Positions 1 to 47,031 of a stretch of DNA of 50,333 nt are shown piece by piece (position 1 is the first letter of the stretch; every line of letters begins with the position of its first letter). The position numbers and the translations under genes are program-made. The DNA comes from Ignavibacteriae bacterium HGW-Ignavibacteriae-1. GTDB lineage: Bacteria > Bacteroidota > Ignavibacteria > Kapaibacteriales > UBA2268. The stretch is taken from contig PGYU01000020.1 in NCBI GenBank assembly GCA_002839825.1, positions 1 through 50,333 on the forward strand. The letters are read 5' to 3'. The notes under the pieces were generated by a model. It did not search any database. It was not told the origin of the DNA and worked only from the letters and a program-made list of their open reading frames with translations.

Positions 1-299
1 TTATGAAAACTGATAGACGCGGAATAGCCGGCAGAGCCGAAGACGACAATTACGTTTACACGTCGCTCGAAATCGAACGGAGAAAAAATCTTATGCTTTA
101 CTTAACTACTGATGGCTTCGCCGACCAAATGAACGAATCAGGGAAAAAATACAGTTCTAAACGTTTCACAGAACTTTTAAATTCAATCGCCGATAACCCG
201 CTTTCGGAACAATATAAAATCTTGAATAATGAACTCGCTGCTCATCAAGGCGACAAGCACCAGATTGACGATATAACAATACTAGGGGTGAGAATATGA
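1..299 (+). CDS. SpoIIE-type PP2C phosphatase, C-terminal fragment (cut by window edge)
   Basis: The open frame enters from the left edge, so the ATG at position 3 is an internal Met. The 98 visible residues are the end of a SpoIIE/PP2C-like serine phosphatase domain. They contain LYLTTDGFADQM, in which the Asp-Gly pair is a metal-binding motif of the family, and end IDDITILGVRI. The first 71 bases are identical to 2025-2095 in the next gene, and the last ~90 bases are nearly identical to 2225-2313. The stop overlaps the next start (ATGA at 296-299), which suggests translational coupling. The upstream part presumably carries TPR repeats and a membrane span like its neighbours. Confidence 0.85.
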   Translation, partial: MKTDRRGIAGRAEDDNYVYTSLEIERRKNLMLYLTTDGFADQMNESGKKYSSKRFTELLNSIADNPLSEQYKILNNELAAHQGDKHQIDDITILGVRI

Positions 300-2119
300 G
301 AAAAGTAATAATACTATTTGTATTTTATTTGGCAACAGTAAACATCAGTTTTGCTCAACTTCAGGGCCAAGAGAAAATAAATTCACTTTTGAAAGAACTC
401 CCTAAGTTGAAGGAAGATACTAATGGAGTATATTTGTATGCAAATTTATCTTTTGAGTATTATTTAATAAATCCTGAGGAAGGAATCAAATATGGGGAAA
501 AAGGTCTCGAACTCGCTGAAAAAATTGCATGGAAAGAAGGAAAAGCAATATGTTATAGTGCTTTAGGTGTTAATTATGAAGGTGGAATATCAGACTTCTC
601 CAAGGCTATTGAATTCTATTATAAATCATTGAGAATTAATGAAGAATTAGGAAACAAACCCGGTATTGCAATAAATCATGGAAATATTGGGAGTATTTAT
701 TTTCGACTATCCAACTTTACAAAAGCACTCGAATATTATCACAAATCACTAAAATATCTCGAGGAGTTAGGCAATAAGAGAGGTATTGGAGCGACCTTGG
801 GAAATATTGGTATTGTATATGCTGAACAAACTAAATATTCAAAAGCCCTTGAGCATTACTTCAAAGCATTGAAAATCAATGAAGAACTTAACAATAAGAA
901 TGGGATAGCTATAAATCTTGGACATATTGGAAATGTTTATGCAAAACAATCGCATTATCCTAAGGGAATTGAATATTACTCAAAAGCTCTTAAAATTAAC
1001 AAAGAGTTAGGAAACAAATCAGGAATTGCAACCAATATGGCTAATTTTGGCATTATATATCTAACACAAGCTCAAGATTCAGTAATTGAAGTTAGTGAGA
1101 ATAAAATAGAATTATTGCTTAATAAAGAAATTAATATAGATAAAGCAATTGAGTATTCACAAAAATCAATTGATATTTACAAAGAACTAGGTGAATTACA
1201 CAACCAATCCAGTATTTTTAAAAATTTATCTGATGCTTACTTTGTAAAAGGCGATTTCAAAAAAGCATTTGAGGCATTTAAGGAATACAAAACCTTACAA
1301 GATTCTGTTTTCTCTATGGATAAGCAAAAGGAATTTGCTAATCTTGAAGCAAAAAGAGAAAATGAACTGAAAGATGCTGAAATAATAATTTTACAAACTG
1401 AAAAGAAGGCGCAGCAGTTTCAGTCTTATCTTCTAGCTGGTGGTGTAATCGTGCTTTTTAGTGCATTTGGTATTGCTTTTTTCCGTTTCCGCGAAAAGAA
1501 GAAATTAAGCGAAAAACTTGCAATCCAAAAGTCAGAAATTGAAAATCAGAAATTACTAGTAGAGGAGAAGAACGAGCAAATTTACGCCTCAATTAGGTAT
1601 GCTTCCACAATCCAAAATGCAATATTGCCTTGGGACGCTATATTAGGCAAGGCTTTTAGTGATTTCATGATTTTCTTCAAGCCGAAGGATATTGTGTCCG
1701 GTGACAGCTATTGGTTCAAGGAAGTTGACGGAGTGAAGTTTCTGGCAGTCATAGATTGCACCGGTCACGGCATTCCGGGCTCAATGCTGACTGTAATAGC
1801 TTCATCAGTACTTGACGATGCAGTTTTGGGCAAGAGGCTCAAAAACACGGGCGAAATCCTAACATATATGAACGATAAAGTCACCGAAGTGCTAAACCAA
1901 AGGCTCAAAGAAAATGAAGTCCGCGACGGAATGGAAGTTGCGCTAATCGCTATTAATGCACACAAAGTCCAATTTTCAGGAGCCGGGCGTCCATTATACA
2001 TGAAAAACAACACATCATTTGAAATTATGAAAACTGATAGACGCGGAATAGCCGGCAGAGCCGAAGACGACAATTACGTTTACACGTCGCTCGAAGTAAC
2101 AATCTTATGCTTTACTTAA
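296..2119 (+). CDS. TPR-repeat membrane sensor with SpoIIE phosphatase domain, frameshift-truncated
   Basis: A signal peptide (residues 1-20, ending SFAQ) is followed by tetratricopeptide repeats of about 40 residues (roughly 45-340). A membrane span at about 375-397 and a short coiled coil (about 400-430) lead into a SpoIIE/PP2C-like domain from about 435 on, with GDSYWF and DCTGHGIPG motifs. The family architecture implies a periplasmic TPR sensor driving a cytoplasmic serine phosphatase, probably in partner switching. The frame breaks near 2095: the other copies have 15 bases where this one has 5, a net loss of 10. The product therefore ends LEVTILCFT and lacks the TTDG metal-binding motif. 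Start shared with its neighbours by an ATGA overlap. Pseudogene or assembly error. Confidence 0.8.
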   Translation: MRKVIILFVFYLATVNISFAQLQGQEKINSLLKELPKLKEDTNGVYLYANLSFEYYLINPEEGIKYGEKGLELAEKIAWKEGKAICYSALGVNYEGGISDFSKAIEFYYKSLRINEELGNKPGIAINHGNIGSIYFRLSNFTKALEYYHKSLKYLEELGNKRGIGATLGNIGIVYAEQTKYSKALEHYFKALKINEELNNKNGIAINLGHIGNVYAKQSHYPKGIEYYSKALKINKELGNKSGIATNMANFGIIYLTQAQDSVIEVSENKIELLLNKEINIDKAIEYSQKSIDIYKELGELHNQSSIFKNLSDAYFVKGDFKKAFEAFKEYKTLQDSVFSMDKQKEFANLEAKRENELKDAEIIILQTEKKAQQFQSYLLAGGVIVLFSAFGIAFFRFREKKKLSEKLAIQKSEIENQKLLVEEKNEQIYASIRYASTIQNAILPWDAILGKAFSDFMIFFKPKDIVSGDSYWFKEVDGVKFLAVIDCTGHGIPGSMLTVIASSVLDDAVLGKRLKNTGEILTYMNDKVTEVLNQRLKENEVRDGMEVALIAINAHKVQFSGAGRPLYMKNNTSFEIMKTDRRGIAGRAEDDNYVYTSLEVTILCFT

Positions 2120-2313
2120 CTACCGATGGCTTCGCCGACCAGATGAACGAAGACGGCAAAAAATTCAGCACCCGCCGCTTTTTGGCATTAATAGAATCAA
2201 TCGCCGATAAGCCACTATCGAACCAATATAAAATCTTGAGTAATGAACTCGCTGCTCATCAAGGCGACAAGCACCAGATTGACGATATAACAATAATAGG
2301 GGTGAGGATATGA
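2107..2313 (+). pseudogene. Out-of-frame 3' end of the truncated SpoIIE phosphatase
   Basis: These 68 codons are the missing end of the preceding phosphatase domain in another frame. They begin LYLTTDGFADQM and end IDDITIIGVRI. The ATG at 2107 corresponds to an internal Met in the intact paralogues, so this is a remnant and not a separate gene. Bases 2140-2209 match the intact third copy (around 4558-4627) almost exactly, whereas bases from about 2225 match the first copy. This indicates exchange between copies. The stop overlaps the ATG of the third gene (ATGA at 2310-2313). Confidence 0.8.
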
Positions 2314-4733
2314 GAAAAGTAATAATACTATTTGTATTTTATTTGGCTACAATAAACATCAGCTTTGCCCAGCTTCAGGGACAAGCGAAAATTGATTCTC
2401 TCAAAGCGGAGATACCAAAAGCAAAGCAAGACACTAACCATGTAAACTTGCTTCATCAAATATCTTTTGCCTTCAATTCTATCGACCCGGATAAAGGAAT
2501 CGAATACGGAGAAAAGGGCTTAGAACTCGCCCAAAAACTATCATGGAGAAAAGGAGAAGCATATTGCTATAACTCGCTTGGAGCTAATAACGATGCAAAA
2601 TCGGATTATACCAAAGCACTTGAGTATTATCACAAAGCACTTAAAATTAATACCGGTACAGGGGATTTAAAAATGATGATATATAATCTCCATAAAATTG
2701 GCGATGTATATCATAAGCAATCCAAATATTCTGAGGCTGAGAATTACTTTAAACAAGTTATAGATGTAATCAAAAATGATGAGCTTATAATCGAGAAAGC
2801 TACTACATTTAAACGGTTAGCCTTTGTACATGAAGAACAGGGTGATTTTACAAAAGCTATGGATTATCATTATAAAGCATTAAGAATCTTTGAAGCTGAA
2901 GATGATAAAAGGAACATTGCTGGTGAATTACATAACATTGCAAATAATTATTTGACTCAATCAAATTATCCCAAAGCTCTGGATTATTTTCAGCAAGCAT
3001 TGAAAATAAACGAAGAAATTGGAAATTTTAGATGGAAGGCTTACAATTTAGCTAGTCTAGCTATAGTTTACTCTGAAGTTTCTGAACATTCTAAGGCTGT
3101 GGAATTTAATCAACAAGCCTTGGAATTGTTTGAAGAAATGGATAACCAATATGCTATTGCCGGATTATTGCACAATATAGGTGCCAATTATACAGATATT
3201 TTTGAACATGAAAAAGCCAAGGACTTCTATTTGAGAGCTATGAAAATGAATGAAGAAATGGGTAATTTGCACTGGTTAACCAACAATTTAGATGCCTTAG
3301 GAAATGTTTATAAATATTTGGCGGATTATTCGAAAGCAATAAAGTTCTTTGAAAGAGCATTATCAATATCTGAAGAAATCGGAGATAAGTCCGGTATAGC
3401 CACAAGTTTAGGAAATATAGGATATTATTACCTATCTTTAGCTCAGGATTCAATAATTAATAAAAGCGAAAATAAGGTGCAGTTATTAATTAACAAAGAT
3501 ATAAACCTTGCCAATTCAATTAAATATTTACAGAGGTCAGTATCCTTACATATTGAAACCGGAGAACGGATTTTTCAATCCTATAGCCTTTTTAATTTAT
3601 CAAGAGCTTACGAATTAAAAGGTAACTACAAAAAAGCATTTGAGGCATTTAAGGAATACAAAACCTTACAAGATTCTGTTTTCTCGATGGATAAGCAGAA
3701 AGAAATTGCGAATCTTGAAGCAAAACGCGAAAATGAATTAAAAGATGCTGAAATCATCATTTTAAACACAGAAAATAAAGCTCAACAGTTCCAATCATAT
3801 TTGCTTGGCGGTGGAGCGATAGTTCTTTTGGGTGCTTTCGGTATTGCTTTCCTGCGTTTCCGCGAAAAGAAAAAACTGAGCGATAAACTTGCACTTCAAA
3901 ACGCTGAAATAGAAAATCAAAAAAACATTGTTGAATCTCAAAAAGCAATTGTTGAGGAGCAAAAGTTCGTACTTCAAGAAAAAAATGACCATATTTATTC
4001 ATCTGTACAATACGCCGCTACAATCCAGCAAGCGATTTTACCTTGGGACAGTATAATCAATTCTGCTTTTTCAGATATTTTAATTTTCTACAAACCGAAA
4101 GACATCGTTTCTGGGGACTCCTACTGGTTTCAGGAAGTTGAAGGTGTCAAATATTTAGCCGTTATTGATTGCACCGGTCATGGAATTCCCGGAGCAATGC
4201 TGACAGTAATTGCCTCTACAGCGTTAGATGATGCGGTTCTTGGCAAAAGATTAAACGATCCGGCTGAAATTCTGACATATATTAATGAAAAAGTAACAGA
4301 AGTATTAAATCAAAAATTAGCTGAAAACAACATTCGCGATGGAATGGAAGTAGCGTTAATTGCCATTCATCAAGATAAGATTACGTTTTCAGGTGCCGGG
4401 CGACCATTGTATCTCAAAAATGGCACATTAGAAATTATCAAAACCGATAAACGCGGAATTGCCGGAAGTACCAAAAATGATGAATACCAATTCAATTCCG
4501 TGGAAATCGAAAAAGCGGAAAATATTACACTTTACCTCACTACAGACGGTTACGCTGACCAGATGAACGAAGACGGCAAAAAATTCAGCACCCGCCGCTT
4601 TTTGGCATTAATAGAATCAATCGCCGATGCCCCAATTTCGGAACAAACCGCAATTTTAGAAAAAGAATTCAACAATCATCGTTGCAATCGCGAACAAATT
4701 GACGATATAACAATAATTGGAGTGAGGATATGA
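2310..4733 (+). CDS. TPR-repeat membrane sensor with SpoIIE-type PP2C phosphatase domain
   Basis: This is the intact, longest copy of the array (807 aa). It has a signal peptide at 1-20 (nearly identical to the preceding gene, ending SFAQ) and about nine or ten TPR units of ~40 residues (about 45-450). A membrane span at ~495-519 and a coiled coil rich in Glu/Gln/Lys (~520-560) lead to a SpoIIE/PP2C domain (~565-807). That domain has GDSYWF, DCTGHGIPG and LTTDGYADQM motifs, so the metal-binding residues look complete. Predicted inner-membrane sensor with periplasmic TPRs and a cytoplasmic phosphatase that would dephosphorylate an anti-sigma-antagonist-type partner; no such partner is visible here. 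A perfect hairpin follows the stop. Confidence 0.9.
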   Translation: MRKVIILFVFYLATINISFAQLQGQAKIDSLKAEIPKAKQDTNHVNLLHQISFAFNSIDPDKGIEYGEKGLELAQKLSWRKGEAYCYNSLGANNDAKSDYTKALEYYHKALKINTGTGDLKMMIYNLHKIGDVYHKQSKYSEAENYFKQVIDVIKNDELIIEKATTFKRLAFVHEEQGDFTKAMDYHYKALRIFEAEDDKRNIAGELHNIANNYLTQSNYPKALDYFQQALKINEEIGNFRWKAYNLASLAIVYSEVSEHSKAVEFNQQALELFEEMDNQYAIAGLLHNIGANYTDIFEHEKAKDFYLRAMKMNEEMGNLHWLTNNLDALGNVYKYLADYSKAIKFFERALSISEEIGDKSGIATSLGNIGYYYLSLAQDSIINKSENKVQLLINKDINLANSIKYLQRSVSLHIETGERIFQSYSLFNLSRAYELKGNYKKAFEAFKEYKTLQDSVFSMDKQKEIANLEAKRENELKDAEIIILNTENKAQQFQSYLLGGGAIVLLGAFGIAFLRFREKKKLSDKLALQNAEIENQKNIVESQKAIVEEQKFVLQEKNDHIYSSVQYAATIQQAILPWDSIINSAFSDILIFYKPKDIVSGDSYWFQEVEGVKYLAVIDCTGHGIPGAMLTVIASTALDDAVLGKRLNDPAEILTYINEKVTEVLNQKLAENNIRDGMEVALIAIHQDKITFSGAGRPLYLKNGTLEIIKTDKRGIAGSTKNDEYQFNSVEIEKAENITLYLTTDGYADQMNEDGKKFSTRRFLALIESIADAPISEQTAILEKEFNNHRCNREQIDDITIIGVRI

Positions 4734-13233: not shown

Positions 13234-14541
13234 ATGAAAAAGATTCTTTTAACAATAGCAGTATCTGCTATGCTATGGCTGACATCTTGCGAAGATCCGC
13301 TCGGTGTAGATGAAAATTACAGAATGACTCAAGAAGTAACATTCGAGACAGTATTGAAATCAAATCGCTCATATCAGGGCGAAACTGAAATCAAAGCTGT
13401 AATACGAAGCAAAGCTGAAGAAGAAGCTGTTTTATCGGCTTTGACATCCATTCGATTCGATGCTACAGGTGAAATAAAGAATGTCTCAATGGGAGAAATA
13501 GATTACGGTAAAGAAATGCTTGTTGTATTCTTTGGAGGACCCAAACCAAGCAGTTCAATTTATGTCGAAATCTCATCAATTATTCAAAATAATGGCAAAC
13601 TTGTCATCGGGACTAAGGAGTATCAACCCGAAAATGGCACAACTGATATTGGACATCCAATTCACATCGTTGTCACAAAACATATTTCCGGCGAAGTTGA
13701 ATTTGAATCAACTAAAGTTGTGAAATTGCCAAATAATGATGAGTTTAAGGAACTCCCATTTGAAAGCATCAGAACCGGCTCGCACGGTATCGAAGCTGAA
13801 ACTGCTGTAAAAATGGCTATTCGCAGCAAAGCTGATGAAGAAGCATTTTTGAAATTGGTCAAATCTAATCAATACGAAGGAAATGTGCAGGTTCCGGTGA
13901 CTTTACCTGACATTGACTATTCGCAAGATATGTACATAATCGTAATGAACGGACCGACTAGCAGTGGCAGTATGTATCTCAGGATTACTTCTGTAATCTT
14001 GCAAAACCAACAAATTACCGTAAATTCCACTTTGTTTATTCCGCAAATTGGCACTGATGACATTGGCTATCCATTTCATTTAATTAAACTGAAAAAACGC
14101 GCTGAAGTTGTCGTTTTTGCCGAAACAGATGAGTTTCATCTTGAAGGTGAAGACGACCCGATAGAACAAAATCCTAATTATTTGAAGTTGTCGGCTTGGT
14201 CTTGGGTATCTTTCGAGGACTCGAACGGAAACGTTAATTTCCCGGATAAGCTCACGATTCCTATACTTTCAGAATTTACTATCATTTTCAAAGAAGACTT
14301 CTACGGTTCAGGATTCGCAGGTTGTAATGCCTATAGTTTTGGGTATTTTACAAACAAAAGTAATGAACTCGAAATTAAGATGGGTTATTCTACATTAGTA
14401 CATTGTGAATTGACTGCGGAATTTATGGAAGCTATAGGGCAAGCTGAAAGCTACAAACTAATGGACGACAAATTAATTATTACAACTAAATCATCAACTT
14501 ACACAAAGATGAGCTTCCGTAAAATTGCATATGTTGAATAA
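13234..14541 (+). CDS. Lipoprotein with two PrcB-like repeats and a META/HslJ-like domain
   Basis: A strong AGGAGA site lies 8 bases before the ATG. The signal sequence ends in an LTSC lipobox (Cys at 19). Two homologous repeats follow (about 25-145 and 150-285). Each has a RSKA-EE(A) segment, an IDY-(G/S)-(K/Q)-(E/D)M core and a GTxDIGxP(I/F)H end, resembling the PrcB C-terminal domain family. Residues ~310-430 resemble a META/HslJ domain (GFAGCNAYS, then a short segment with a second Cys at VHCEL). It is the last gene of the ECF sigma operon, so it may be the envelope output or a sensor component. Function unknown. Confidence 0.7.
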   Translation: MKKILLTIAVSAMLWLTSCEDPLGVDENYRMTQEVTFETVLKSNRSYQGETEIKAVIRSKAEEEAVLSALTSIRFDATGEIKNVSMGEIDYGKEMLVVFFGGPKPSSSIYVEISSIIQNNGKLVIGTKEYQPENGTTDIGHPIHIVVTKHISGEVEFESTKVVKLPNNDEFKELPFESIRTGSHGIEAETAVKMAIRSKADEEAFLKLVKSNQYEGNVQVPVTLPDIDYSQDMYIIVMNGPTSSGSMYLRITSVILQNQQITVNSTLFIPQIGTDDIGYPFHLIKLKKRAEVVVFAETDEFHLEGEDDPIEQNPNYLKLSAWSWVSFEDSNGNVNFPDKLTIPILSEFTIIFKEDFYGSGFAGCNAYSFGYFTNKSNELEIKMGYSTLVHCELTAEFMEAIGQAESYKLMDDKLIITTKSSTYTKMSFRKIAYVE

Positions 14542-14631: not shown

Positions 14632-14680
14632 ACCCCAAAATCCGTTCCCCCTCTTGTAAGAGGGGGTTAGGGGGTGTTCT
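14632..14680. repeat. Dispersed intergenic palindromic repeat, family R1, copy 1
   Basis: The core CCGTTCCCCCTCT-n4-AGAGGGGGTTAGGGGGTG recurs at 24013-24056 (same orientation) and 46976-47020 (opposite). The CCCCCTCT/AGAGGGGG arms form a hairpin. It lies between the lipoprotein terminator and the end of sucC. Confidence 0.7.
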
Positions 14681-19193: not shown

Positions 19194-19775
19194 CTATTTG
19201 CATGAGATATATTTACGGATACGGCTCAATGAAGTATCGGTGATACCTAAATACGATGCTACATGCTTAAGCGGTGCATATTGCAATATCTCGGGTTTTT
19301 CCCGCAAAAGTGCAAGGTATCTGTCTGTAGCCGAATCGGTAATCATCGCAAGTGAGCGCTGTTTGGTAGAAAATAGCACCCCTGCCATCCATGTCCGACC
19401 CCATTCGGTGAACGCATTAATATTCTGGAACAATTCCTGAAACGAACAGTACGATATTTTCCAACATGTGCAATCAGTCAGAGCCTGGATGTTTTCTTTC
19501 GTCGGGCTACGCAAAAAAAGCGATGACACTTCTATCACGATATCGCCCGGGCTGAAAAATGCTGTGGTTACTTCGTTGCCTTCGAAACTATTTGCATAAG
19601 CGCGCAGCAAGCCTTCTTCCAAGCAAAAGTATTCGTTTTCAATTTGCCCTTCGCGGAGCAAAAAATCACCTTTTGCAATCCGAACCTTTTCGTGGCGCGA
19701 ACAAATCATATCGTAATCGCTCGCTTTCAGACTCGGGTATTTATATATTTCTCTTACAGTTGTAAACTCACTCAT
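19194..19775 (-). CDS. Crp/Fnr-family transcriptional regulator
   Basis: 193 aa. A cyclic-nucleotide-binding-type beta barrel (about 25-115) contains VRIAKGDFLLREGQ and FFSPGDIVIEVSS. A dimer helix follows and a C-terminal helix-turn-helix (about 165-190) with LKHVASYLGITDTSLSRIRK. No Fnr-like cysteine cluster, so it is more likely a small-ligand-responsive regulator. The target is unknown; it is divergent from the small-RNA candidate on the plus strand. Confidence 0.88.
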   Translation of the reverse strand: MSEFTTVREIYKYPSLKASDYDMICSRHEKVRIAKGDFLLREGQIENEYFCLEEGLLRAYANSFEGNEVTTAFFSPGDIVIEVSSLFLRSPTKENIQALTDCTCWKISYCSFQELFQNINAFTEWGRTWMAGVLFSTKQRSLAMITDSATDRYLALLREKPEILQYAPLKHVASYLGITDTSLSRIRKYISCK

Positions 19776-19948
19776 AATTCTTCCAATATGTATTGATAAA
19801 TCATCTATAAAATATTAAAAATTCAAAGCTCAAATTCAAGAAAATAATTAATTATGACCATTCCATATTTGACATGACACATGAAAGGCGAAAAAGTCAC
19901 CAACTTTTTTCGATTTGTGGAAAATTTATTCAAAAAAAGTGAATTATA

Positions 19949-19978
19949 TTTGGAATTTTGAAAGATTTTGTATATTTG
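19949..19978 (+). promoter_or_regulatory. Bacteroidota-type promoter of a candidate small RNA
   Basis: TTTG (19949-19952), an 18-base spacer and TATATTTG (19971-19978) match the TTTG/TAnnTTTG consensus with the same spacing as the sucC promoter. A second TATATTTG overlaps the upstream element at 19945-19952. No open reading frame starts downstream before an intrinsic terminator at 20016-20050. Confidence 0.6.
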
Positions 19979-19984
19979 CAATGT

Positions 19985-20055
19985 ACTATTAGTACAACAT
20001 TGTTCAAATTACTCTACCAAAGCGAGCACCCCTTGTCTCGCTTTGGTTTATTTTA
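19985..20055 (+). ncRNA. Candidate small RNA (about 70 nt)
   Basis: The interval lies between a promoter-like element ending at 19978 and a perfect terminator stem at 20016-20047, with no protein-coding gene on this strand. Around the expected start there is a short stem (TGTACT-ATT-AGTACA, 19982-19996; alternative pairing CAATGT/ACATTG, 19979-20002). A single-stranded AT-rich stretch follows, then the terminator hairpin with a C-rich loop (CACCCCTTGT). No family is recognised. The start position is inferred from the promoter. Confidence 0.5.
20016..20055 (+). terminator. Intrinsic terminator without an upstream protein gene
   Basis: A perfect 11-bp stem (20016-20026 with 20037-20047) with a 10-base loop is followed by TTATTTTATA. 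Only the plus strand has the U-rich tail. The nearest upstream gene is on the opposite strand, so this must end a non-coding transcript, or be a remnant. Confidence 0.75.
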
Positions 20056-20148
20056 TACCTCGCATTCTAATACCTTCACAAACATAGCCCATGAATTTAT
20101 TCGTGGGAAAACCAATTTACCTCACCCCGAAAGACCGCCCTCCTTTCT

Positions 20149-20250
20149 GTCCCGTCAGTTGTTCTATCCCGTCTTTGTTCTCTGTCTCGAAAATTGTTCT
20201 CTGCCCCGACTTTGTTCTCTGTCCCGTTTTTGTAACAAAAACGGAACGAG
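20149..20250. repeat. Direct repeat flanking the restriction-modification gene, left copy
   Basis: This 102-base element is about 90% identical to 23148-23252. It contains four tandem units of 17-19 bases, each with TTGTTCT(CTG) and ending in a C-rich CCG/TCG (unit starts near 20155, 20172, 20190 and 20209). It ends in a hairpin, CCGTTTTT-GTAAC-AAAAACGG. It lies about 80 bases upstream of the gene's start codon. A minus-strand frame through it is open but has no other sign of coding. Confidence 0.8.
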
Positions 20251-20330
20251 AAATAATGACACACTATTTCGTTAAAAATGTTAATTTTGTAATGTGATTT
20301 TGACTGTTGCAACAAATTAACAAACGGTAC

Positions 20331-23135
20331 ATGGCTGAGAACATCAAAGACAAACTGAACAAATTAGTTTTCGATTTTAAATTGTCCAACTATCGCGATT
20401 TAAACGAGAGCCAAACACGAATTTCTTATATTGACAGATTTTGGGAGCTTTTGGGATGGAATGTCCGCAATCCACTCGAAGTCCAAGTGGAGCGCACCGA
20501 CAAAAGCTATATGGGCAGAAGACCCGATTACCGCTTCATCAAAGGGAACAAAACCCTGTTTTTTGTGGAGGCGAAAAAACCTGCCGAAGATTTGACCAAT
20601 CCCCGACACATCTATCAGACCAAGCTCTATTGCTGGAACGGTAAAGTGCCGATTGCCATATTGACGGATTTTGAAGAGTTCCGTCCATTCAGGGCACTCG
20701 GCAAACCGCTGATTACCGATGCAAAAAAGGGGCTAATCAAAGAATTGGACATGCTTTGCGAGGAATATCCCGACAGAGTTGACGATTTGTTGGCTACATT
20801 TGGGCGAGAAGCCGTGTTTGCGGGCTCTTTGGACGAACTTGTCAAACCCACTCAATTAGAACTTCGCGATACTGTGGATAAACATTTCCTCAATTCGCTT
20901 TCGGAGTGGAGAATCAAACTCGCATCGCTAATCGCAAAAAAGAATCATTTCGATAATGAGTTCGCGCTTGCCGAAGCCACTCAACGAATCTTGGACAGAC
21001 TTGTGTTTCTGCGGATTTTGCAAGATAGGGACATCGAAAACACCGATTTCATCAAGAGCATTCTCGAGCATCGAGTCGGCAATTCCTATGCTGCATTTCT
21101 GATGATTTGTAAGGAACTCGCACCGAAATACAACGGGCTGATTTTCAATCCGCATCCACTATCCGAAAATCTCACAATCGAAGCATCGCTATTCAAAAAT
21201 ATCGTCAAAGAGCTGAATGTGGAGGATTCGCCCTACAGATTCGACGAAATCCCCGTAGAAGTGCTCGGCACAATTTACGAACGGTTCTTGGGTGACGAAA
21301 TCAGCTTCGACAAGGGCAGACAAGTTGTCATAGACCAAAAGCCCGAAGTGCGGAAAGCGGGCGGCGTTTACTACACTCCGCAGTACATCGTCGAGTACAT
21401 CGTCGCAAACACCGTCGGCAAGCTTTTGGAGCAAGCCCGAACACCGGACGATGTCAGCCGACTCAAAATACTCGACCCCGCATGTGGCTCCGGCTCATTC
21501 CTTTTGGGGGCATTCGATGCACTAATCAAATGGCACGAGGATTACTACAACGCTCATATCACCGAAATTCACGAAAAGAAGGGCAGAAACACACATTTGC
21601 TGGCATTCATGGACGAAGAGACCGGCAAGTTGAGATTGACCGCACGAAAAAAGGGCAGAATACTCCAAAACAACATTTACGGAGTGGATATAGACAAGCA
21701 GGCGACCGAAGTGGCACAGATGTCGCTCTATTTGAAAGTGTTGGAGGGCATAGCCAAGGAGCCGCTCGCAGTCTTGGGATTCCAAGATGCGCTGCTGCCA
21801 AAGATGGACGACAACATCAAATGCGGCAACTCGCTAATCGGGAGCGACTTCATCAGCGATGACTTTTTCGGGATGTCCGAGCGGGAGCGGCACAAAATCA
21901 ATCCATTCGATTGGGAAGTCGCATTCCCATTCCTGAAAGTGACTGGTGGCTTCGATGCCGTCATCGGCAATCCGCCGTATATAGATTACCGACTGTTAGG
22001 TGAAAAGCAGAATAAGTATTTTACATATACTTATATTTCAACAAAAGTTAAAGAAAAGTGGAACATATACATTATATTTATCGAATTAGGAATAAGAATT
22101 TTAAAACAAACAGGTTATTTTGGTTACATTGTACCTAATGCGTTTTTAGTTTCGGATTTTGGAATAGAATTAAGAAAACTTTTACTACAGAATACTTCAA
22201 TATTAAAATTAATTGATGTATCAAAGTTGAAAGTTTTTGGTGATGTTGCGACGTACCCTGTTCTATTGTTTTATCAAAACCTCAAATCTGAAAGTAATAT
22301 AGTAAAAATTTTATATCCAAGAATTGTTGATGAACTATATTTTGAAAACTTTATCGAAATAAAACAGTCTGAACTGCAAAATTCAAATCATAAGTACATT
22401 TTGTCAACAAATTTTACCAATTCAAATTTGATAATAGTCAATAAACTTGAATTGAATTCAAAGAAATTAAAAGATGTGTGTAGTAATTTTGTCTGGGGAA
22501 CTTCAATTAGTGGATTCAAAAGTTACAAAATAAAAAATGAATCTTATATTGAACTTCCTTCAGAAATGCAACAACAGTATTCAAAAGTAATTCAAACCGC
22601 TGACATTAAAAGATACAATATCAAATGGCAAGAAGAATTCATCTCAAATAATATCTATTCAGAGAATCTAAAATTGACATTTAGCAAGAAAAAAATTGTA
22701 ATTGCAAGACTTACAAAGAGAATTCAGGCTACTCTTGATGATGATAGATTTTATGTTGGGAAATCATCCATAATAACTTCCTTCAATGTGAACGAGAAAT
22801 ATTTACTTGGAATACTGAACTCCAAATTGATGTATTATTATTTTTTCACAAAGTTTGAAAATACTCATATGAGTGGTGGATATATAAGGTTTGATATACC
22901 ATATTTAAAAGAATTACCGATTAAATCAGACCCGAACCCCCAAACCCACGACAAAATCATCGAACTCGTCGAGCGAATGTTGCGACTGCACAAGGAATTA
23001 CAAAAAGCCACGGAGTTCGACCGCAAGCACATAGAGCAATACATCTCCCGCACCGACAAAGAAATAGACGCCCTCGTTTACCAACTCTACGCCCTCACCC
23101 CCGAAGAAATACGAATTGTGGAGGGGGGAGAGTGA
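20331..23135 (+). CDS. Type IIG restriction-modification enzyme (fused nuclease, N6-adenine methyltransferase and specificity domain)
   Basis: The ATG at 20331 is preferred over an in-frame TTG at 20307; the product is 934 aa. The N-terminal PD-(D/E)xK-type nuclease has D66 in RRPDYRF and E80-x-K82 in FFVEAKKP. The methyltransferase has motif I LDPACGSGSF (about 381-390) and motif IV NPPY (547-550). A target-recognition region follows (about 557-863) and then a helical C-terminus. One polypeptide should both methylate adenine and cut DNA at a specific site, protecting against phage. Bases from about 22000 to 22915 are much more AT-rich than both ends, as if the specificity region had been exchanged. 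Direct repeats flank the gene. No separate partner subunit is present. Confidence 0.9.
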   Translation: MAENIKDKLNKLVFDFKLSNYRDLNESQTRISYIDRFWELLGWNVRNPLEVQVERTDKSYMGRRPDYRFIKGNKTLFFVEAKKPAEDLTNPRHIYQTKLYCWNGKVPIAILTDFEEFRPFRALGKPLITDAKKGLIKELDMLCEEYPDRVDDLLATFGREAVFAGSLDELVKPTQLELRDTVDKHFLNSLSEWRIKLASLIAKKNHFDNEFALAEATQRILDRLVFLRILQDRDIENTDFIKSILEHRVGNSYAAFLMICKELAPKYNGLIFNPHPLSENLTIEASLFKNIVKELNVEDSPYRFDEIPVEVLGTIYERFLGDEISFDKGRQVVIDQKPEVRKAGGVYYTPQYIVEYIVANTVGKLLEQARTPDDVSRLKILDPACGSGSFLLGAFDALIKWHEDYYNAHITEIHEKKGRNTHLLAFMDEETGKLRLTARKKGRILQNNIYGVDIDKQATEVAQMSLYLKVLEGIAKEPLAVLGFQDALLPKMDDNIKCGNSLIGSDFISDDFFGMSERERHKINPFDWEVAFPFLKVTGGFDAVIGNPPYIDYRLLGEKQNKYFTYTYISTKVKEKWNIYIIFIELGIRILKQTGYFGYIVPNAFLVSDFGIELRKLLLQNTSILKLIDVSKLKVFGDVATYPVLLFYQNLKSESNIVKILYPRIVDELYFENFIEIKQSELQNSNHKYILSTNFTNSNLIIVNKLELNSKKLKDVCSNFVWGTSISGFKSYKIKNESYIELPSEMQQQYSKVIQTADIKRYNIKWQEEFISNNIYSENLKLTFSKKKIVIARLTKRIQATLDDDRFYVGKSSIITSFNVNEKYLLGILNSKLMYYYFFTKFENTHMSGGYIRFDIPYLKELPIKSDPNPQTHDKIIELVERMLRLHKELQKATEFDRKHIEQYISRTDKEIDALVYQLYALTPEEIRIVEGGE

Positions 23136-23147
23136 AGGGAAAATTTG

Positions 23148-23252
23148 CGTCCCGTCAGTTGTTCTGTCTCCATCTTTGTTCTCTGTCTCGAAAGTTGTTC
23201 TCTGCCACGACTTTGTTCTCTGTCCCGTTTTTGTAACAACTGACGGAACGAG
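23148..23252. repeat. Direct repeat flanking the restriction-modification gene, right copy
   Basis: Starts 12 bases after the enzyme's stop codon. It is bounded by 16-base terminal inverted repeats with one mismatch (CGTCCCGTCAGTTGTT at 23148-23163 and AACAACTGACGGAACG at 23235-23250) and holds the same four TTGTTCT-type units as the left copy. In the left copy the right-hand inverted repeat has changed to AACAAAAACGG. The structure resembles a small non-autonomous mobile element. Confidence 0.8.
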
Positions 23253-23282
23253 AGCTGAGTGGAAAAAAAAATGTTGAAAACT

Positions 23283-23294
23283 TCTCAATTGAGA
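23283..23294. promoter_or_regulatory. 12-base palindrome upstream of the orphan gene
   Basis: TCTCAATTGAGA is a perfect palindrome 32 bases before the orphan's ATG, in a plausible position for an operator overlapping the promoter. Regulator unknown. Confidence 0.25.
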
Positions 23295-23325
23295 GTAGTA
23301 TATTGAAAAAGCAAAAGGTGCTAAT

Positions 23326-23922
23326 ATGTTTTTTAAACAAATAAAAGGGGCGATTATGATTTTTGATAAAACAAAAGGTTTGATGCATGTATTGTATGAA
23401 ATGAAAATGTTTGCACATACAACAAGTTACTTAATGAAAGCTGATAGTAATAAAATGACAAACGATGACTACGTATATTTAGAGTCTTGGACTATACACC
23501 TAAGAAATTTTCTTTACTTTTTTAAAGATGAAGGAAGTTTTAAATATGTGAAAGATCAAAAAGTCCCTAATGATGATATAATGTATTTTGATTATGTTTC
23601 AAAGAATAAGAAAATAATTGATAAAATTGCGAATTTAAATTATATTAGAGGAAAGGTTGATAAATATACAGCCCACTTATCCTGCAAAAGGATTAATGAA
23701 TATTCATGGAAAATTTATCCCAAATACGAAATAATCAGCAAAGCTTTTGAAATTTTTCTACAAGAGTTAGATTCAAATTATATTACGAACTTTGTGAGAG
23801 AAATTGAGGAGATAAAAGAATTGGATTCAAAAATTAAATCGGAAAGGAATCAATCTATTAATTCAAAAGTAAAGGAACCCAATCAGATGAATTCTAATGT
23901 ACAAGCTTTGAATTCATACTAA
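23326..23922 (+). CDS. Hypothetical AT-rich protein (orphan next to the restriction-modification gene)
   Basis: 198 aa, not recognised. An AAAGGTG site precedes ATG 23326, and an AAAAGGGG site precedes an alternative ATG at 23356; both are credible. The protein is mostly helical and rich in Lys/Asn/Tyr, with no signal peptide or membrane span. A segment with HLRNFLYFF (about 54-62) followed by an NDDIMYFDYV stretch, and a later KVDKYTAHLS, vaguely recalls HEPN-like helical proteins of defence loci. That is a weak impression. The last ~40 residues are low-complexity Ser/Asn. Composition and position suggest it belongs to the accessory segment. Confidence 0.6.
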   Translation: MFFKQIKGAIMIFDKTKGLMHVLYEMKMFAHTTSYLMKADSNKMTNDDYVYLESWTIHLRNFLYFFKDEGSFKYVKDQKVPNDDIMYFDYVSKNKKIIDKIANLNYIRGKVDKYTAHLSCKRINEYSWKIYPKYEIISKAFEIFLQELDSNYITNFVREIEEIKELDSKIKSERNQSINSKVKEPNQMNSNVQALNSY

Positions 23923-23954
23923 ATTTAGTCCATAAATATCTTAAACTAAACCCC

Positions 23955-23990
23955 AAACAAAAATCGGGTGGCAAATTCTTGCGACCCGAT
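23955..23990 (-). terminator. Terminator of the methylmalonyl-CoA decarboxylase operon
   Basis: On the minus strand an ATCGGGT stem (23984-23990 with 23963-23969), an inner GCAA/TTGC stem and a 4-base loop are followed by TTTTGTTTGG. It lies about 150 bases beyond the mmdB stop, after a block of dispersed repeats that would form the 3' untranslated region. Confidence 0.65.
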
Positions 23991-24009
23991 ATAAAATTAC
24001 ACCAAAAAT

Positions 24010-24078
24010 CCCCCAAAAGCCGTTCCCCCTCTATCAAGAGGGGGTTAGGGGGTGTGTTCTGACAATCTATTTTAGGAC
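24010..24078. repeat. Dispersed intergenic repeat, family R1, copy 2, with TGACAA tail
   Basis: CCCCAAAAGCCGTTCCCCCT leads into a CCCCCTCT/AGAGGGGG hairpin and then a tail TGACAATCTATTTTAGGAC at 24060-24078. The same tail recurs at 45526-45544 and, reversed, at 46953-46971. Confidence 0.7.
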
Positions 24079-24094
24079 AACAAATCCAAAACAA

Positions 24095-24137
24095 CCACCC
24101 CGTCTGCTTCGCAGCCACCCCTCAAGAGGGGAATTTA
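24095..24137. repeat. Dispersed intergenic repeat, family R2, copy 1
   Basis: The reverse complement of 45453-45495 with very few differences (CCACCCCGTCTGCTTCGCAG, then CCCCTC-AA-GAGGGG). It abuts the stop codon of mmdB. Confidence 0.75.
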
Positions 24138-24140
24138 TTT

Positions 24141-25289
24141 TTACCAGCCCACTTTCATCAAGTAGCTGAGCAAAATACCGGCGGCTACTGCCGAACCGAT
24201 TACACCGGAGACGTTTGGTGCCATTGCGTGCATCAGCAAGTAGTTGGATTTGTCTTCCTTTTGTCCCAATTGATGTACTACGCGGGCACTATCGGGCACT
24301 GCCGATACACCTGCCGCTCCTATCATAGGGTTGAGTTTGTTGTCGCCCTTCAAGAATAAATTCATGAATTTGGCGAATAATACACCACCAGCTGTTGCAA
24401 CCATGAATGAGACCGCTCCAAGCCCGAAAATCAGGACTGATTGCGGTGTCAAAAATGTTGTAGCTTGTGTAGATGCCCCGACCGATACACCCAACAAAAT
24501 CGTTACTATGTCAATCAATTGTTTGCTTGCGGTGTCTGCCAATCGTTTTGTGACGCCTGATTCCTTGAGCAAATTGCCAAAGAATAGCATCCCGAGCAAA
24601 GGCAATGCACCGGGAGATATAAATGTAGTGAGCAATAGCCCAACGATTGGGAATATCATTTTTTCAGTTTTAGAAACTGCACGTGGCGGTTTCATTTTGA
24701 TTAGTCGTTCTTCTTTTGATGTCAATAATTTGATAATCGGCGGTTGAATCACGGGCACTAATGCCATATACGAATAAGCTGCAATTGCTATCGCTCCAAT
24801 GAGTTCGGGCGCCAATCGTGACGACAAGAATATCGCCGTAGGACCGTCAGCACCACCGATAATACCGATTGCGGCTGCTTGGTTGAGCGTGAATCCGAGT
24901 GCTAATGCAGTCAAAAATGTCAGAAATATACCGATTTGAGCGGCTGCACCCAACAACATCAATCTGGGATTGGAAAGCAATGCCGAAAAGTCGGTCATCG
25001 CTCCGATTCCGAGAAAAATCAAGGGTGGATAGAGCCCTTTGAGCACGCCAAAATACAGCATATTCATTACGCTGCCGTCTTCGTAAATCCCGATTTGCAT
25101 CCCCATATTTTCCATGAAGGGAATATTACCGATTAGGATACCAAATCCAATTGGCACGAGTAAAAGTGGTTCATAATCTTTGGCTATCGCCAAATAAATA
25201 AAAATCAACCCTACCAATATCATGATAAGGTGTCCCCAGGTAACGTTAGCAAAACCCGAGAGCTCCATAAAATGCATTACACCTTCCAT
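24141..25289 (-). CDS. mmdB: Na+-translocating decarboxylase beta subunit (OadB/MmdB family)
   Basis: 382 aa, normal length for OadB/MmdB/GcdB. Many membrane spans, with the family motifs GGADGPTAIFLSSRLAP (about 142-158) and GAAGVSAVPDSARVVHQ (near 325-345). It is the integral-membrane subunit that decarboxylates carboxybiotin and exports Na+. Its start shares one base with the stop of the biotin carrier (TGATG), so they are coupled. As the last gene of a four-gene operon with a methylmalonyl-CoA-type carboxyltransferase, the complex is most likely methylmalonyl-CoA decarboxylase rather than oxaloacetate decarboxylase. Confidence 0.92.
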   Translation of the reverse strand: MEGVMHFMELSGFANVTWGHLIMILVGLIFIYLAIAKDYEPLLLVPIGFGILIGNIPFMENMGMQIGIYEDGSVMNMLYFGVLKGLYPPLIFLGIGAMTDFSALLSNPRLMLLGAAAQIGIFLTFLTALALGFTLNQAAAIGIIGGADGPTAIFLSSRLAPELIGAIAIAAYSYMALVPVIQPPIIKLLTSKEERLIKMKPPRAVSKTEKMIFPIVGLLLTTFISPGALPLLGMLFFGNLLKESGVTKRLADTASKQLIDIVTILLGVSVGASTQATTFLTPQSVLIFGLGAVSFMVATAGGVLFAKFMNLFLKGDNKLNPMIGAAGVSAVPDSARVVHQLGQKEDKSNYLLMHAMAPNVSGVIGSAVAAGILLSYLMKVGW

Positions 25290-26181: not shown

Positions 26182-27741
26182 TTACAATGGTATATTATCA
26201 TGTTTTTTGAGCGGATTTGTATCTTTTTTCGATGACAGCATTTGTAGCGCTCTGATTACTCTAAATCTTGTATTTCTCGGTTCGATAACGTCGTCTATGT
26301 AGCCATGTTTAGCAGCTACGTATGGATTAGCAAATTTTGAACGGTACTCTTCTTCCTTATCTGCAATGAATTTTGCTCTTTCTTCGAGATTTTCAATTTC
26401 CATCGATTCCTTTTGGTACAGTACTTCGATAGCGCCCTTTGGTCCCATTACGGCAATTTCGGCTGAGGGCCAAGCGTAATTGATGTCACCGCGTAAATGC
26501 TTCGAACTCATTACATCGTAAGCGCCACCATATGCTTTGCGGAGAATAACCGTAACTTTGGGTACAGTTGCTTCGCCATAAGCGAACAATAATTTAGCAC
26601 CGTGAATGATTATGCCGCCGTACTCTTGAGCTGTTCCGGGTAAAAATCCGGGTACATCTACTAAGGTAAGAATCGGAATATTGAAAGCATCGCAGAAACG
26701 TACAAAACGTGCTGCCTTGCGAGATGCATTAATATCGAGCACACCTGCTAAGTAGTTCGGTTGATTGGCAACTATTCCTACAGGAGTTCCGTTGAATTTC
26801 GAGAACCCGATTACGATATTTTGGGCATAATGGCGATGAATTTCCAGAAATTCTTCGTCATCTGCAATCGAGTGAATAACATCTTTCACGTCGTAAGGTT
26901 TGTTCGGATTGTCAGGGACAATGTAATTCAAACTATTTTCGAGCCTGTCAATTGGGTCTGAGCAAACATAAATGGGTGGGTCTTCGTGGTTATTTTGTGG
27001 CAAATAGCTCAATAATTTACGAATGAGCAAAAGCCCTTCGTCTTCGCTATCGGCTACAAAGTGAGTTACGCCGGATTTTGTTCCGTGTACTCTTGCACCG
27101 CCGAGTTCTTCGACGGTCACATCTTCGTTCGTCACTGTTTTCACAACTTTTGGACCAGTCACAAACATATAACTTGTGCCTTGGCTCATGATTGTAAAGT
27201 CAGTCAATGCCGGAGAATAAACCGCACCACCGGCGCAAGGTCCGAATACGGCAGAAATTTGCGGCACCACACCCGAAGCCATTATATTACGTTGGAAAAT
27301 TTCGGCATAACCACCGAGGCTTTTCACACCTTCTTGAATCCTTGCACCACCTGAATCGTTGATACCAATTACGGGAGCGCCGACTTTCATCGCTTTGTCC
27401 ATCACTTTGCATATTTTTTGTGCAAACATTTCGGAAAGCGATCCGCCAAAAATCGTGAAATCTTGCGAAAAAATAAAAACGAGCCTGCCGTCAATTGTCC
27501 CGTAACCGGTTACAACACCATCAGAAAGATATTCTTCGACGTCGCTGCCGAAATCCGTCGGTTTACTCGACACGAACATGTCAAATTCCTCGAAACTTCC
27601 TTCGTCCAACAACTTCTCAATTCTTTCCCTTGCAGTGTATTTACCTTTTTTATGTTGCGATTCAATCCTCTTTTCTCCACCTCCAAGCCTCGCTTTTTCC
27701 CTAAGAGCCATCAATTCTTTGATTTTTTCTTCAATTGCCAT
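26182..27741 (-). CDS. mmdA: Methylmalonyl-CoA decarboxylase/acyl-CoA carboxylase carboxyltransferase subunit
   Basis: 519 aa, the usual length of MmdA/PccB. The crotonase-like carboxyltransferase halves are clear: [19 protein letters not shown] and [16 protein letters not shown] in the first, and [25 protein letters not shown] and [18 protein letters not shown] in the second. It transfers CO2 between methylmalonyl-CoA and biotin. First gene of the operon, followed by OadG-, carrier- and beta-subunit genes, which identifies the Na+-pumping complex. A GAGGA ribosome site precedes the start. The same subunit could also serve a biotin-dependent carboxylase working in the other direction. Confidence 0.92.
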
Positions 27742-45403: not shown

Positions 45404-45452
45404 GCAAGTAATTGAATGTGGATGAATCTATAATTCACCAATCCCTACGACA

Positions 45453-45495
45453 TAAATTCCCCTCTTGAGGGGTGGATGCGAAGCAGACGGGGTGG
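45453..45495. repeat. Dispersed intergenic repeat, family R2, copy 2
   Basis: The reverse complement of 24095-24137 with few differences (TAAATTCCCCTCTTGAGGGG and then GCAGACGGGGTGG). It lies between the dipeptidase and the minus-strand T9SS gene. Confidence 0.75.
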
Positions 45496-45525
45496 ATGTC
45501 TTATCTTTTCCCCGTGGGCTATGTT

Positions 45526-46952: not shown

Positions 46953-47020
46953 GTCCTAAAATAAGTTGTCTTAACACCCCCTAACCCCCTCTTATTAGAG
47001 GGGGAACGGCTTTCGGGGGA
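46953..47020. repeat. Dispersed intergenic repeat, family R1, copy 3 (reverse orientation)
   Basis: Reverse orientation of 24010-24078, including the TGACAA-type tail (46953-46971) and the CCCCCTCT/AGAGGGGG hairpin with its CGGCTTTCGGGGGA flank. It fills most of the gap upstream of the T9SS gene start. Confidence 0.7.
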
Positions 47021-47031
47021 TTTTATGTTTT

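What the first reader, a model, noticed from the sequence alone, without database searches (positions are those of the whole stretch)
20149..23252. Restriction-modification gene bracketed by ~100-base direct repeats that are themselves TIR-bounded elements
A type IIG enzyme gene (20331-23135) lies between two ~90% identical elements (20149-20250 and 23148-23252). Each holds four 17-19-base units. The right copy has 16-base terminal inverted repeats with one mismatch; in the left copy the right-hand inverted repeat has changed. No copy occurs elsewhere in the window. This could be a mobile cassette excisable by recombination between the repeats, or two insertions of a MITE-like element around a defence gene.
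Basis: seen in the sequence. Interest (0 to 1): 0.75.

Follow-up and report, generated by a model that had tools for sequence, protein, structure and literature searches.

The report
Repeat-bracketed roaming restriction-modification gene
A bacterial DNA-cutting defence gene sits between two copies of a small hairpin-ended repeat, and comparison with two related genomes indicates that the gene moves between genomes and sites while swapping its target-recognition part; this resembles known restriction-gene mobility, but the repeat at its edges has an unusual build.

Summary
Two direct copies (20149-20251, 23148-23252; 92% identical) of a hairpin-bounded array of ~18-base units bracket a type IIG restriction-modification (RM) gene; they are the only full copies found in the genome. 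The terminal palindrome alone occurs at 33 sites (15 examined, all between ORFs), so it is REP-like. The array unit is different: in three congeneric genomes all 11 exact units lie at this site or, in G001, just upstream of the RM gene at another locus. In G001 this site holds one array and no RM gene; its RM cassette lies beside tRNA-Pro, between direct repeats of 220 bp that contain the same hairpin. RM third-codon identity between species is 91-92%, against 54-84% for three flanking genes, so the cassette probably spreads horizontally. Its target-recognition domain differs in all three. No transposase or recombinase was found in the cassettes, and no target-site duplication. Best reading: a small defence cassette carried by homologous recombination through intergenic repeats, like RM units with long direct repeats; the repeat's anatomy recalls the BrickBuilt MITE. 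Excision between the two window copies is possible but not shown. New variant of a known kind.

The parts
20149..20251 (-). Left array element (eL): hairpin end, about four 18-base units, opposite end; its inner end now forms a private 9-bp hairpin. By the GTTCC motif the inner edge is 20247
20255..20280 (+). Cassette leader AATGACACACTATTTCGTTAAAAATG, left edge of the block shared with G001 at 96.4%; also in front of RM in G001 and G002 and in front of TcmP in G002
20331..23135 (+). Type IIG restriction-modification gene (934 aa; Eco57I / N6_Mtase / TaqI_C)
21981..22946 (+). Exchanged target-recognition region: aa 551-850 only 20-45% identical between genomes (851-900: 57-74%); G+C 26% against 48% and 52% on either side
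   Evidence: DNA breakpoints
23136..23148 (+). Short tail of the RM module ending ATTTGC; in G002 a similar tail runs into a second leader copy, here into eR (the last base is counted in both)
23148..23252 (-). Right array element (eR) with intact 16-nt terminal inverted repeats
23326..23922 (+). 198-aa ORF, 26% G+C, no match in Pfam, NCBIfam or PADLOC at E 0.001; stands where G002 has TcmP + DUF5131
23954..23999 (.). Terminator-like stretch shared with the gene-less site of G001 and with G002
19955..20056 (+). Promoter-terminator block (TATATTTG at 19971, hairpin from 20016, T-rich end). Relatives of it lie on both sides of the RM cassette in G001
24138..24140 (.). Breakpoint just behind the OAD-beta stop codon: alignment with G001 and G002 ends here, 3 bp short of where their array e1 begins; the window has 138 bp of other repeats instead

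Best explanation
The RM gene, with its own leader (and in relatives a partner gene plus DUF5131), is a small mobile defence cassette without a recombinase of its own. It sits in gaps filled with short intergenic repeats, and its edges lie at or near copies of a hairpin-ended repeat. Shown by comparison: it occurs at two different sites and is more alike between species than its neighbours; at all three known positions it is bracketed by direct repeats of 100-220 bp that are the hairpin array or contain the hairpin; the recognition domain is exchanged while the rest stays constant. Inferred: movement uses the host's homologous recombination between repeat copies (crossover of incoming DNA or a circle with a resident repeat), which leaves the cassette between direct repeats and would in principle allow loss or tandem amplification. 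The hairpin itself is a REP-like repeat; the arrays probably grew by tandem duplication of one arm.
For: (1) G001's orthologous site has one 2-unit array and no RM gene. (2) G001 carries the RM cassette elsewhere, by tRNA-Pro. (3) RM aa 1-550: third-codon identity 91.1 / 92.4 / 91.8% for the three pairs; three flanking genes 54.1-68.4% (window-G001) and 74.2-83.8% (window-G002). (4) Exact units: 4, 2 and 5 in G000, G001 and G002, all 11 at the OAD-beta/cNMP site or 47 bp before the RM leader in G001; 0 in G008, G015, G009. (5) Bracketing direct repeats: window 105 bp 92%, G002 103 bp 93%, G001 220 bp 88%; the G001 right copy ends at 13521 and synteny resumes at 13523 (G000) and 13532 (G002). 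(6) The promoter-terminator block occurs by pattern at 3 places in G001 (one on each side of the cassette, one at the gene-less site) and 2 in G002, both at the OAD site. (7) Against G001 the shared block starts at 20255, 3-7 bp from the eL edge depending on where that edge is drawn.
Against: No excision junction, circle or read evidence. The G001 gene-less allele is not a simple excision product. In G001 the bracketing repeat is the block plus hairpin, not the array; only a one-unit remnant lies upstream. Bracketing repeats (88-93%) are less alike than the RM constant part is between species (96-97%), so they are not fresh duplications. Concerted evolution of the arrays is not clear: eL-eR and e1-e2 are 94.1%, eL-e2 89.1%, but e1 of G002 and e1 of G001, at the same position, agree at 65 of 67 aligned bases. 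The DNA background is uneven: one flanking gene (26182-27741) is 91.2% identical between window and G001 where others are 80-87%. The stretches fetched from the corresponding tRNA-Pro site of G002 and G000 show no block, so the repeats may have come in with the cassette. Only three genomes. tRNA-Pro proximity leaves room for a vanished integrase.
Confidence: 0.58

Rival explanations
1. Two independent insertions of a MITE-like element around a resident RM gene; the gene itself is not moved by the element.
For: Terminal inverted repeats, an internal minisatellite and intergenic position as in the BrickBuilt MITE. The end palindrome occurs at 33 sites. An array is also at the site in G001 without RM.
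Against: No target-site duplication: mean best flank match 0.85 bases in 20 elements, 1.22 in re-paired controls. No transposase among 20 of 28 neighbours of solo hairpins scanned. Exact array units are confined to this site and to the RM gene in G001, and the gene has moved.
Confidence: 0.2
2. Insertion with long target duplication, as proposed for other RM units: an RM unit enters and about 100 bp of target is duplicated.
For: One array in the gene-less allele, two around the gene in the window; lengths near 100 bp. PMC3874152 (passages) says some RM systems insert with target duplications of the order of 100 bp.
Against: The duplicated sequence is related to an interspersed repeat, and G001 has a different bracketing repeat at the other site, with no copy in the stretches fetched from the corresponding sites. 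The single array in G001 is beside OAD-beta, not at the insertion point.
Confidence: 0.2
3. REP-like elements that happen to be common around a variable site; the arrays act as mRNA 3'-end or terminator structures and play no part in RM mobility.
For: Palindromic, between ORFs at 15 of 15 examined sites, none in a divergent gap by the ORF set (L118 would be divergent by the stricter set). At 6 of 14 sites the palindrome is within 45 bp of an ORF's 3' end. Paired changes: 9 of 17 two-mismatch sites keep the palindrome.
Against: eL lies in a divergent gap. It does not explain why exact array units track the RM gene. REP spread by a Y1 transposase finds no support: G001 has 16 palindromes and no Y1_Tnp hit.
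Confidence: 0.15

Closest known systems
RM units with long (~100 bp) direct repeats / 'insertion with long target duplication' (Nobusato 2000; Furuta 2010; both seen only as cited in PMC3874152 and PMC3031569)
   Same: RM gene bracketed by about 100-bp direct repeats, no linked transposase, mobility inferred by genome comparison
   Different: Here the repeat is a hairpin-bounded minisatellite related to a genome-wide palindrome, and a second site uses another hairpin-containing repeat; the single copy of the gene-less allele is not at the insertion point
BrickBuilt MITE of Porphyromonas gingivalis (PMC4596501: abstract, outline and passages)
   Same: Tandem ~20-nt units without spacers between end segments with small inverted repeats; intergenic
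   Different: 18-base units that resemble one hairpin arm; 2 or 3 full arrays per genome rather than 19 copies; an IS with matching ends was not searched for genome-wide here; tied to a defence gene
REP / CGTC-tagged palindromes (PMC3733652: passages; abstract start in the listing)
   Same: Small palindromes, 8-9 bp stems, mostly downstream of coding regions; CGTC families reported in Bacteroidetes and Chlorobi and without a dedicated transposase
   Different: CGTC here lies inside the stem, not as an unpaired tag; the loop is about 3 nt; arrays present
Target-recognition-domain exchange in RM genes (Helicobacter; PMC3983042 passages, PMC3077401 search listing)
   Same: Constant parts nearly identical, recognition domain replaced
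   Different: Single-chain type IIG enzyme, exchange between genomes of one genus, sharp G+C shift

Membership tests
MITE (non-autonomous DNA transposon) | Terminal inverted repeats | tested here: met
   16 nt, 1 mismatch, in eR; GTTCC...GGGAC ends in the 6 arrays aligned; eL's inner end is changed
MITE (non-autonomous DNA transposon) | Target-site duplication | tested here: not met
   6 arrays and 14 palindromes, mean 0.85 against 1.22 in control
MITE (non-autonomous DNA transposon) | Autonomous relative: transposase between the same ends | tested here: inconclusive
MITE (non-autonomous DNA transposon) | Many dispersed full-length copies | tested here: not met
   2 full copies in G000, 3 in G002, 1 short one in G001, all at this site; a shorter array-like form exists at L114
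REP (RAYT-associated) | Intergenic palindromes in many copies with conserved pairing | tested here: met
   33 sites at up to 2 mismatches, control 0; 9 of 17 two-mismatch sites are paired changes; between ORFs at 15 of 15
REP (RAYT-associated) | RAYT gene flanked by the same repeat | tested here: not met
   Y1_Tnp: G000 1, G001 0, G002 3, G015 1, G008 3; in their 8 loci (about 2.5-3.3 kb each) the palindrome shows only near one weak fragment of G008 (L075), plus one poor match in L068
RM unit with long direct repeats | RM gene between direct repeats of order 100 bp | tested here: met
   window, G002 and G001
RM unit with long direct repeats | Empty allele with exactly one repeat copy at the insertion point | tested here: inconclusive
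   G001 site has one array but beside OAD-beta; a solo palindrome lies at the insertion point
Type IIG RM enzyme | Nuclease, N6 methylase and TRD in one chain | tested here: met
   the nuclease part only by weak HSDR_N (22.7 bits, cut-off 25.1) and the PADLOC model; activity not tested
Composite transposon / IS-linked RM | IS with transposase on each side | tested here: not met
   No transposase domain in the genes scanned around RM in the window, G002 and G001; some of these ORFs have no family match

The most novel reading that the evidence does not exclude
The hairpin arrays are dedicated recombination platforms: a family of intergenic palindromes that, where expanded into arrays, serves as a docking and exchange site for defence cassettes in this genus, so that RM genes and partners are shuffled between sites by repeat-to-repeat crossover (or by an unknown hairpin-recognising enzyme) without an integrase of their own. 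A hint beyond the RM site: the one array-like form seen elsewhere (L114) stands 58 bp from an ORF with an Mrr_cat restriction-nuclease domain.
Probability: 0.15. Interest if true: 0.8.

Novelty: new variant of a known kind. Interest (0 to 1): 0.5.

Why it matters
How RM genes without a transposase or integrase move is still inferred mostly from genome comparison. Here three close genomes give a gene-less allele, two occupied alleles and a second site, with hairpin repeats at the edges in each case. The repeat-recombination model can therefore be tested directly by sequencing more strains. It also ties a BrickBuilt-like minisatellite to a gene that it may help to move.

Tried and rejected
RAYT/REP mobilisation: searched Y1_Tnp in 5 genomes and scanned the 8 loci found; a palindrome lies near one weak Y1 fragment of G008 (L075), in a genome with 101 palindromes, and one poor match in L068; none in the loci of G000, G002 or G015. 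Rfam on 19700-24300: two hits far below their gathering scores. Phage origin: 0 exact matches of the palindrome in viral contigs. Excision between e1 and e2, or between eL and eR, as origin of the G001 gene-less allele: rejected (terminator kept, 198-aa ORF absent). RM homologues of other genera: 6 loci of 5 genera fetched (G014, G017 twice, G006, G011, G015); no array, one poor 3-mismatch match in G017; the remaining homologues were not looked at. The leader as a general attachment site: rejected, it occurs 4 times, in 3 of 60 genomes, before RM or TcmP, and looks like a shared promoter region (promoter consensus recalled). Paper search for RM + MITE + Bacteroidetes + intergenic + direct repeats: 0 papers.

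REP rival raised from 0.13 to 0.15.
Full report
Observation. The right one has 16-nt terminal inverted repeats with one mismatch. Read on the - strand an element is GTTCCGTCAGTTGTT, then tandem units of about 18 bases (AGAGAACAAAGACGGGAC and variants), then AACAACTGACGGGAC. The units resemble the closing arm, so the array looks like one opening arm followed by several closing arms (my reading). In the left copy the opening arm has become CCGTTTTTG, which pairs perfectly with the next unit. The gene between them is a type IIG RM enzyme.

The repeat in the genome. Searching the whole genome (3.2 Mb, 43 contigs) with the right element finds only these two full copies and two short pieces. The terminal palindrome GTCAGTTGTNACAACTGAC is common: 33 sites at up to two mismatches, with 0 for the reversed control. 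Of 54 genomes of the family searched with one mismatch, 8 have it: 16, 16 and 20 sites in the three congeneric genomes, 101 each in G008 and G015, 2 in G009, and 1 each in G011 and G034. Of the 17 sites with two mismatches in G000, 9 keep the palindrome by paired changes (8 T-A to G-C, 1 to A-T; counted from the list; copies, not independent events). All 15 examined sites lie between ORFs: 4 convergent, 11 tandem, none divergent. ORFs are mechanical; L121 rests on short ORFs, and L118 would be divergent with the stricter ORF set. At 6 of 14 sites the palindrome is within 45 bp of an ORF's 3' end. Of 20 neighbours scanned out of 28, several are ordinary genes (ribosomal protein S16, ClpB-type AAA, amylase, cytochromes, an AI-2E transporter) and none is a transposase; two have domains also seen in defence or toxin genes (Fic at L108, Mrr_cat at L114); some had no match. 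At L114 the palindrome is followed by two further closing arms, an array in the making, beside the Mrr_cat ORF. No target-site duplication was detected in 6 arrays and 14 palindromes.

The site in relatives. The gap between a cyclic-nucleotide-binding protein gene (19194-19775) and the oxaloacetate decarboxylase beta gene (24141-25289) is variable. G002 has the array e1 at that same place with four units, then terminator, DUF5131, TcmP, RM, array e2, a promoter-terminator block, array e3 and a second block. In the window the e1 position is taken by 138 bp of other repeats; the alignment breaks at 24138, 3 bp short of where the array starts in the others. eR lies 13 bp behind the RM stop codon.

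The cassette moves. G001 carries an RM gene 75% identical in protein at a different place, C66. Its DNA matches window 20255-21980 at 96.4% and 22928-23135 at 92.8%, with no BLASTN match between. It is followed by a DUF3800 protein and a DUF5131 gene 95.7% identical in DNA to that of G002 (third codon 87.4%). The region lies beside tRNA-Pro. G002 has other genes there (a Fic/RhuM protein and others); in the 16 kb fetched from G000 only the peptidase M3 side of the region is found. Third-codon identity over RM residues 1-550 is 91.1% (window-G001), 92.4% (window-G002) and 91.8% (G001-G002). For OAD-beta, the cNMP gene and a kelch gene it is 65.8, 54.1 and 68.4% (window-G001) and 83.8, 74.2 and 79.1% (window-G002). 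The near-equal values for the three RM pairs do not follow the species relations, so transfer between lineages is the simplest reading. The background is uneven: the carboxyltransferase gene at 26182-27741 is 91.2% identical in DNA between window and G001, where the other flanking genes are 80-87%; I did not compute its third codons.

Repeats travel with it. The exact unit TTTGTTCTCTGTYYY occurs 4, 2 and 5 times in G000, G001 and G002, and 0 times in G008, G015 and G009. In G001 the two places are the gene-less OAD site and a remnant 47 bp before the RM leader at C66. If positions were random, one of two units falling within 140 bp of the RM start would have a chance of about 1 in 10,000 (my arithmetic, uniform model). 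One-mismatch hits away from these sites number 29 in the six genomes, against 35 for the reversed control. The promoter-terminator block found by pattern occurs in G001 at C66 on each side of the RM cassette and at the gene-less OAD site, and in G002 twice at the OAD site. That pattern misses the window's own copy at 20014 and a further G001 copy at L096 8051, which a looser expression finds, so the count is a lower bound. The G001 cassette thus lies between direct repeats of 220 bp, 88% identical, each with the hairpin near its end. The right copy ends 2 bp before synteny with G000 resumes and 11 bp before synteny with G002 resumes. As a control, in 16 held stretches of 236 kb in all, the other direct repeats of at least 90 bp and 80% within 10 kb are in the window's first 4 kb, L034, L098 and L102; I did not establish for all of them whether they are coding.

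Edges of the module. Against G001 the 96% block starts with AATGACACACTATTTCGTTAAAAATG at 20255, 3-7 bp from eL. Against G002 the aligned block runs on through the array. The same leader stands before TcmP in G002, directly after an RM tail ending ATTTGC; in the window a similar tail runs into eR. The leader occurs 4 times, in 3 of 60 genomes. It is followed by TAATTTTG or TATATTTG, which fit the Bacteroidota -7 consensus (recalled; that the host is a bacteroidote is my inference from gene content and a related record title), so I read it as a shared promoter region rather than an attachment site.

Specificity exchange. In 50-residue bins, residues 1-550 are 94-100% identical among the three genomes, 551-850 are 20-45%, 851-900 are 57-74% and 901-934 are 97-100%. 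The variable part has 26% G+C against 48% and 52% on either side. The recognition domain has been replaced.

Mechanism and limits. I favour homologous recombination at interspersed repeats as the carrier. This step is inferred. The similarity of the arrays gives no clear help: eL-eR and e1-e2 are 94.1% alike, eL-e2 (corresponding positions) 89.1%, eL-e1 92.2%, but e1 of G002 and of G001 agree at 65 of 67 aligned bases. Against a fresh duplication: the bracketing repeats are less alike than the RM constant part is between species. No excision product was seen, and the G001 gene-less allele is not one. The direction of movement cannot be told from three genomes.

Literature. PMC3874152 (passages) and PMC3031569 (passages) describe RM units moving without known mobile elements, some with target duplications of the order of 100 bp. 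The original papers were not read (Nobusato 2000 seen as a citation; Furuta 2010 not held). BrickBuilt (PMC4596501; abstract, outline and passages) is the closest anatomy. CGTC REPs (PMC3733652; passages) are the closest palindromes. Domain movement: PMC3983042 passages and PMC3077401 search listing. One search combining RM, MITE, Bacteroidetes, intergenic and direct repeats found no paper. I did not search for this exact sequence in print.

Noticed in passing
window 19955-20056; L028 11374-11528 and 11810-11934; L096 7757-7883, 7937-8085, 13308-13451; L029 8118-8250: A promoter-plus-terminator block (TATATTTG or similar, 40-100 variable bases, then hairpin CCAAAGCGAGC...GCTCGCTTTGG and a T-rich end) that looks like a small-RNA gene; by pattern in 5 genomes it occurs only at this site and around the RM cassette in G001.
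   Followed up: partly
L028 6342-7984; L096 11183-13184: The RM gene's partner genes vary (TcmP-like PDC-M41A in G002, a DUF3800 protein in G001) while the DUF5131 gene after them is 95.7% identical: a constant-variable-constant cassette.
   Followed up: partly
window 23326-23922: 198-aa ORF of 26% G+C without a family match in three libraries, placed where G002 has TcmP and DUF5131; may be an unknown defence gene.
   Followed up: no
L114 1440-2443 (G000 C26): The palindrome followed by two further closing arms, next to an ORF with ATP-cone and Mrr_cat (restriction endonuclease) domains.
   Followed up: no
window 24000-24137: Two other interspersed repeats with near copies at window 46953-47024, 45452-45499 and 14633-14677 fill the place of array e1.
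   Followed up: no
L066 (JAGXRP010000082.1): The record is titled Desulfobulbaceae bacterium, but its contig matches genome G001, which lies in the same genus as the window; the related record JAGXRQ is titled Bacteroidetes, so the title may be a mislabel.
   Followed up: no
window 1-378 and 2025-2392; 1223-1552 and 3594-3923: Direct repeats of 82-87% within the first 4 kb, mostly over ORFs at 296-2119 and 2310-4733, probably duplicated genes.
   Followed up: no
G008 and G015 (same family): 101 copies each of the palindrome, in G015 often beside a second form GTCGGTTGTTACAACCGAC, while 46 of the 54 family genomes searched have none.
   Followed up: no
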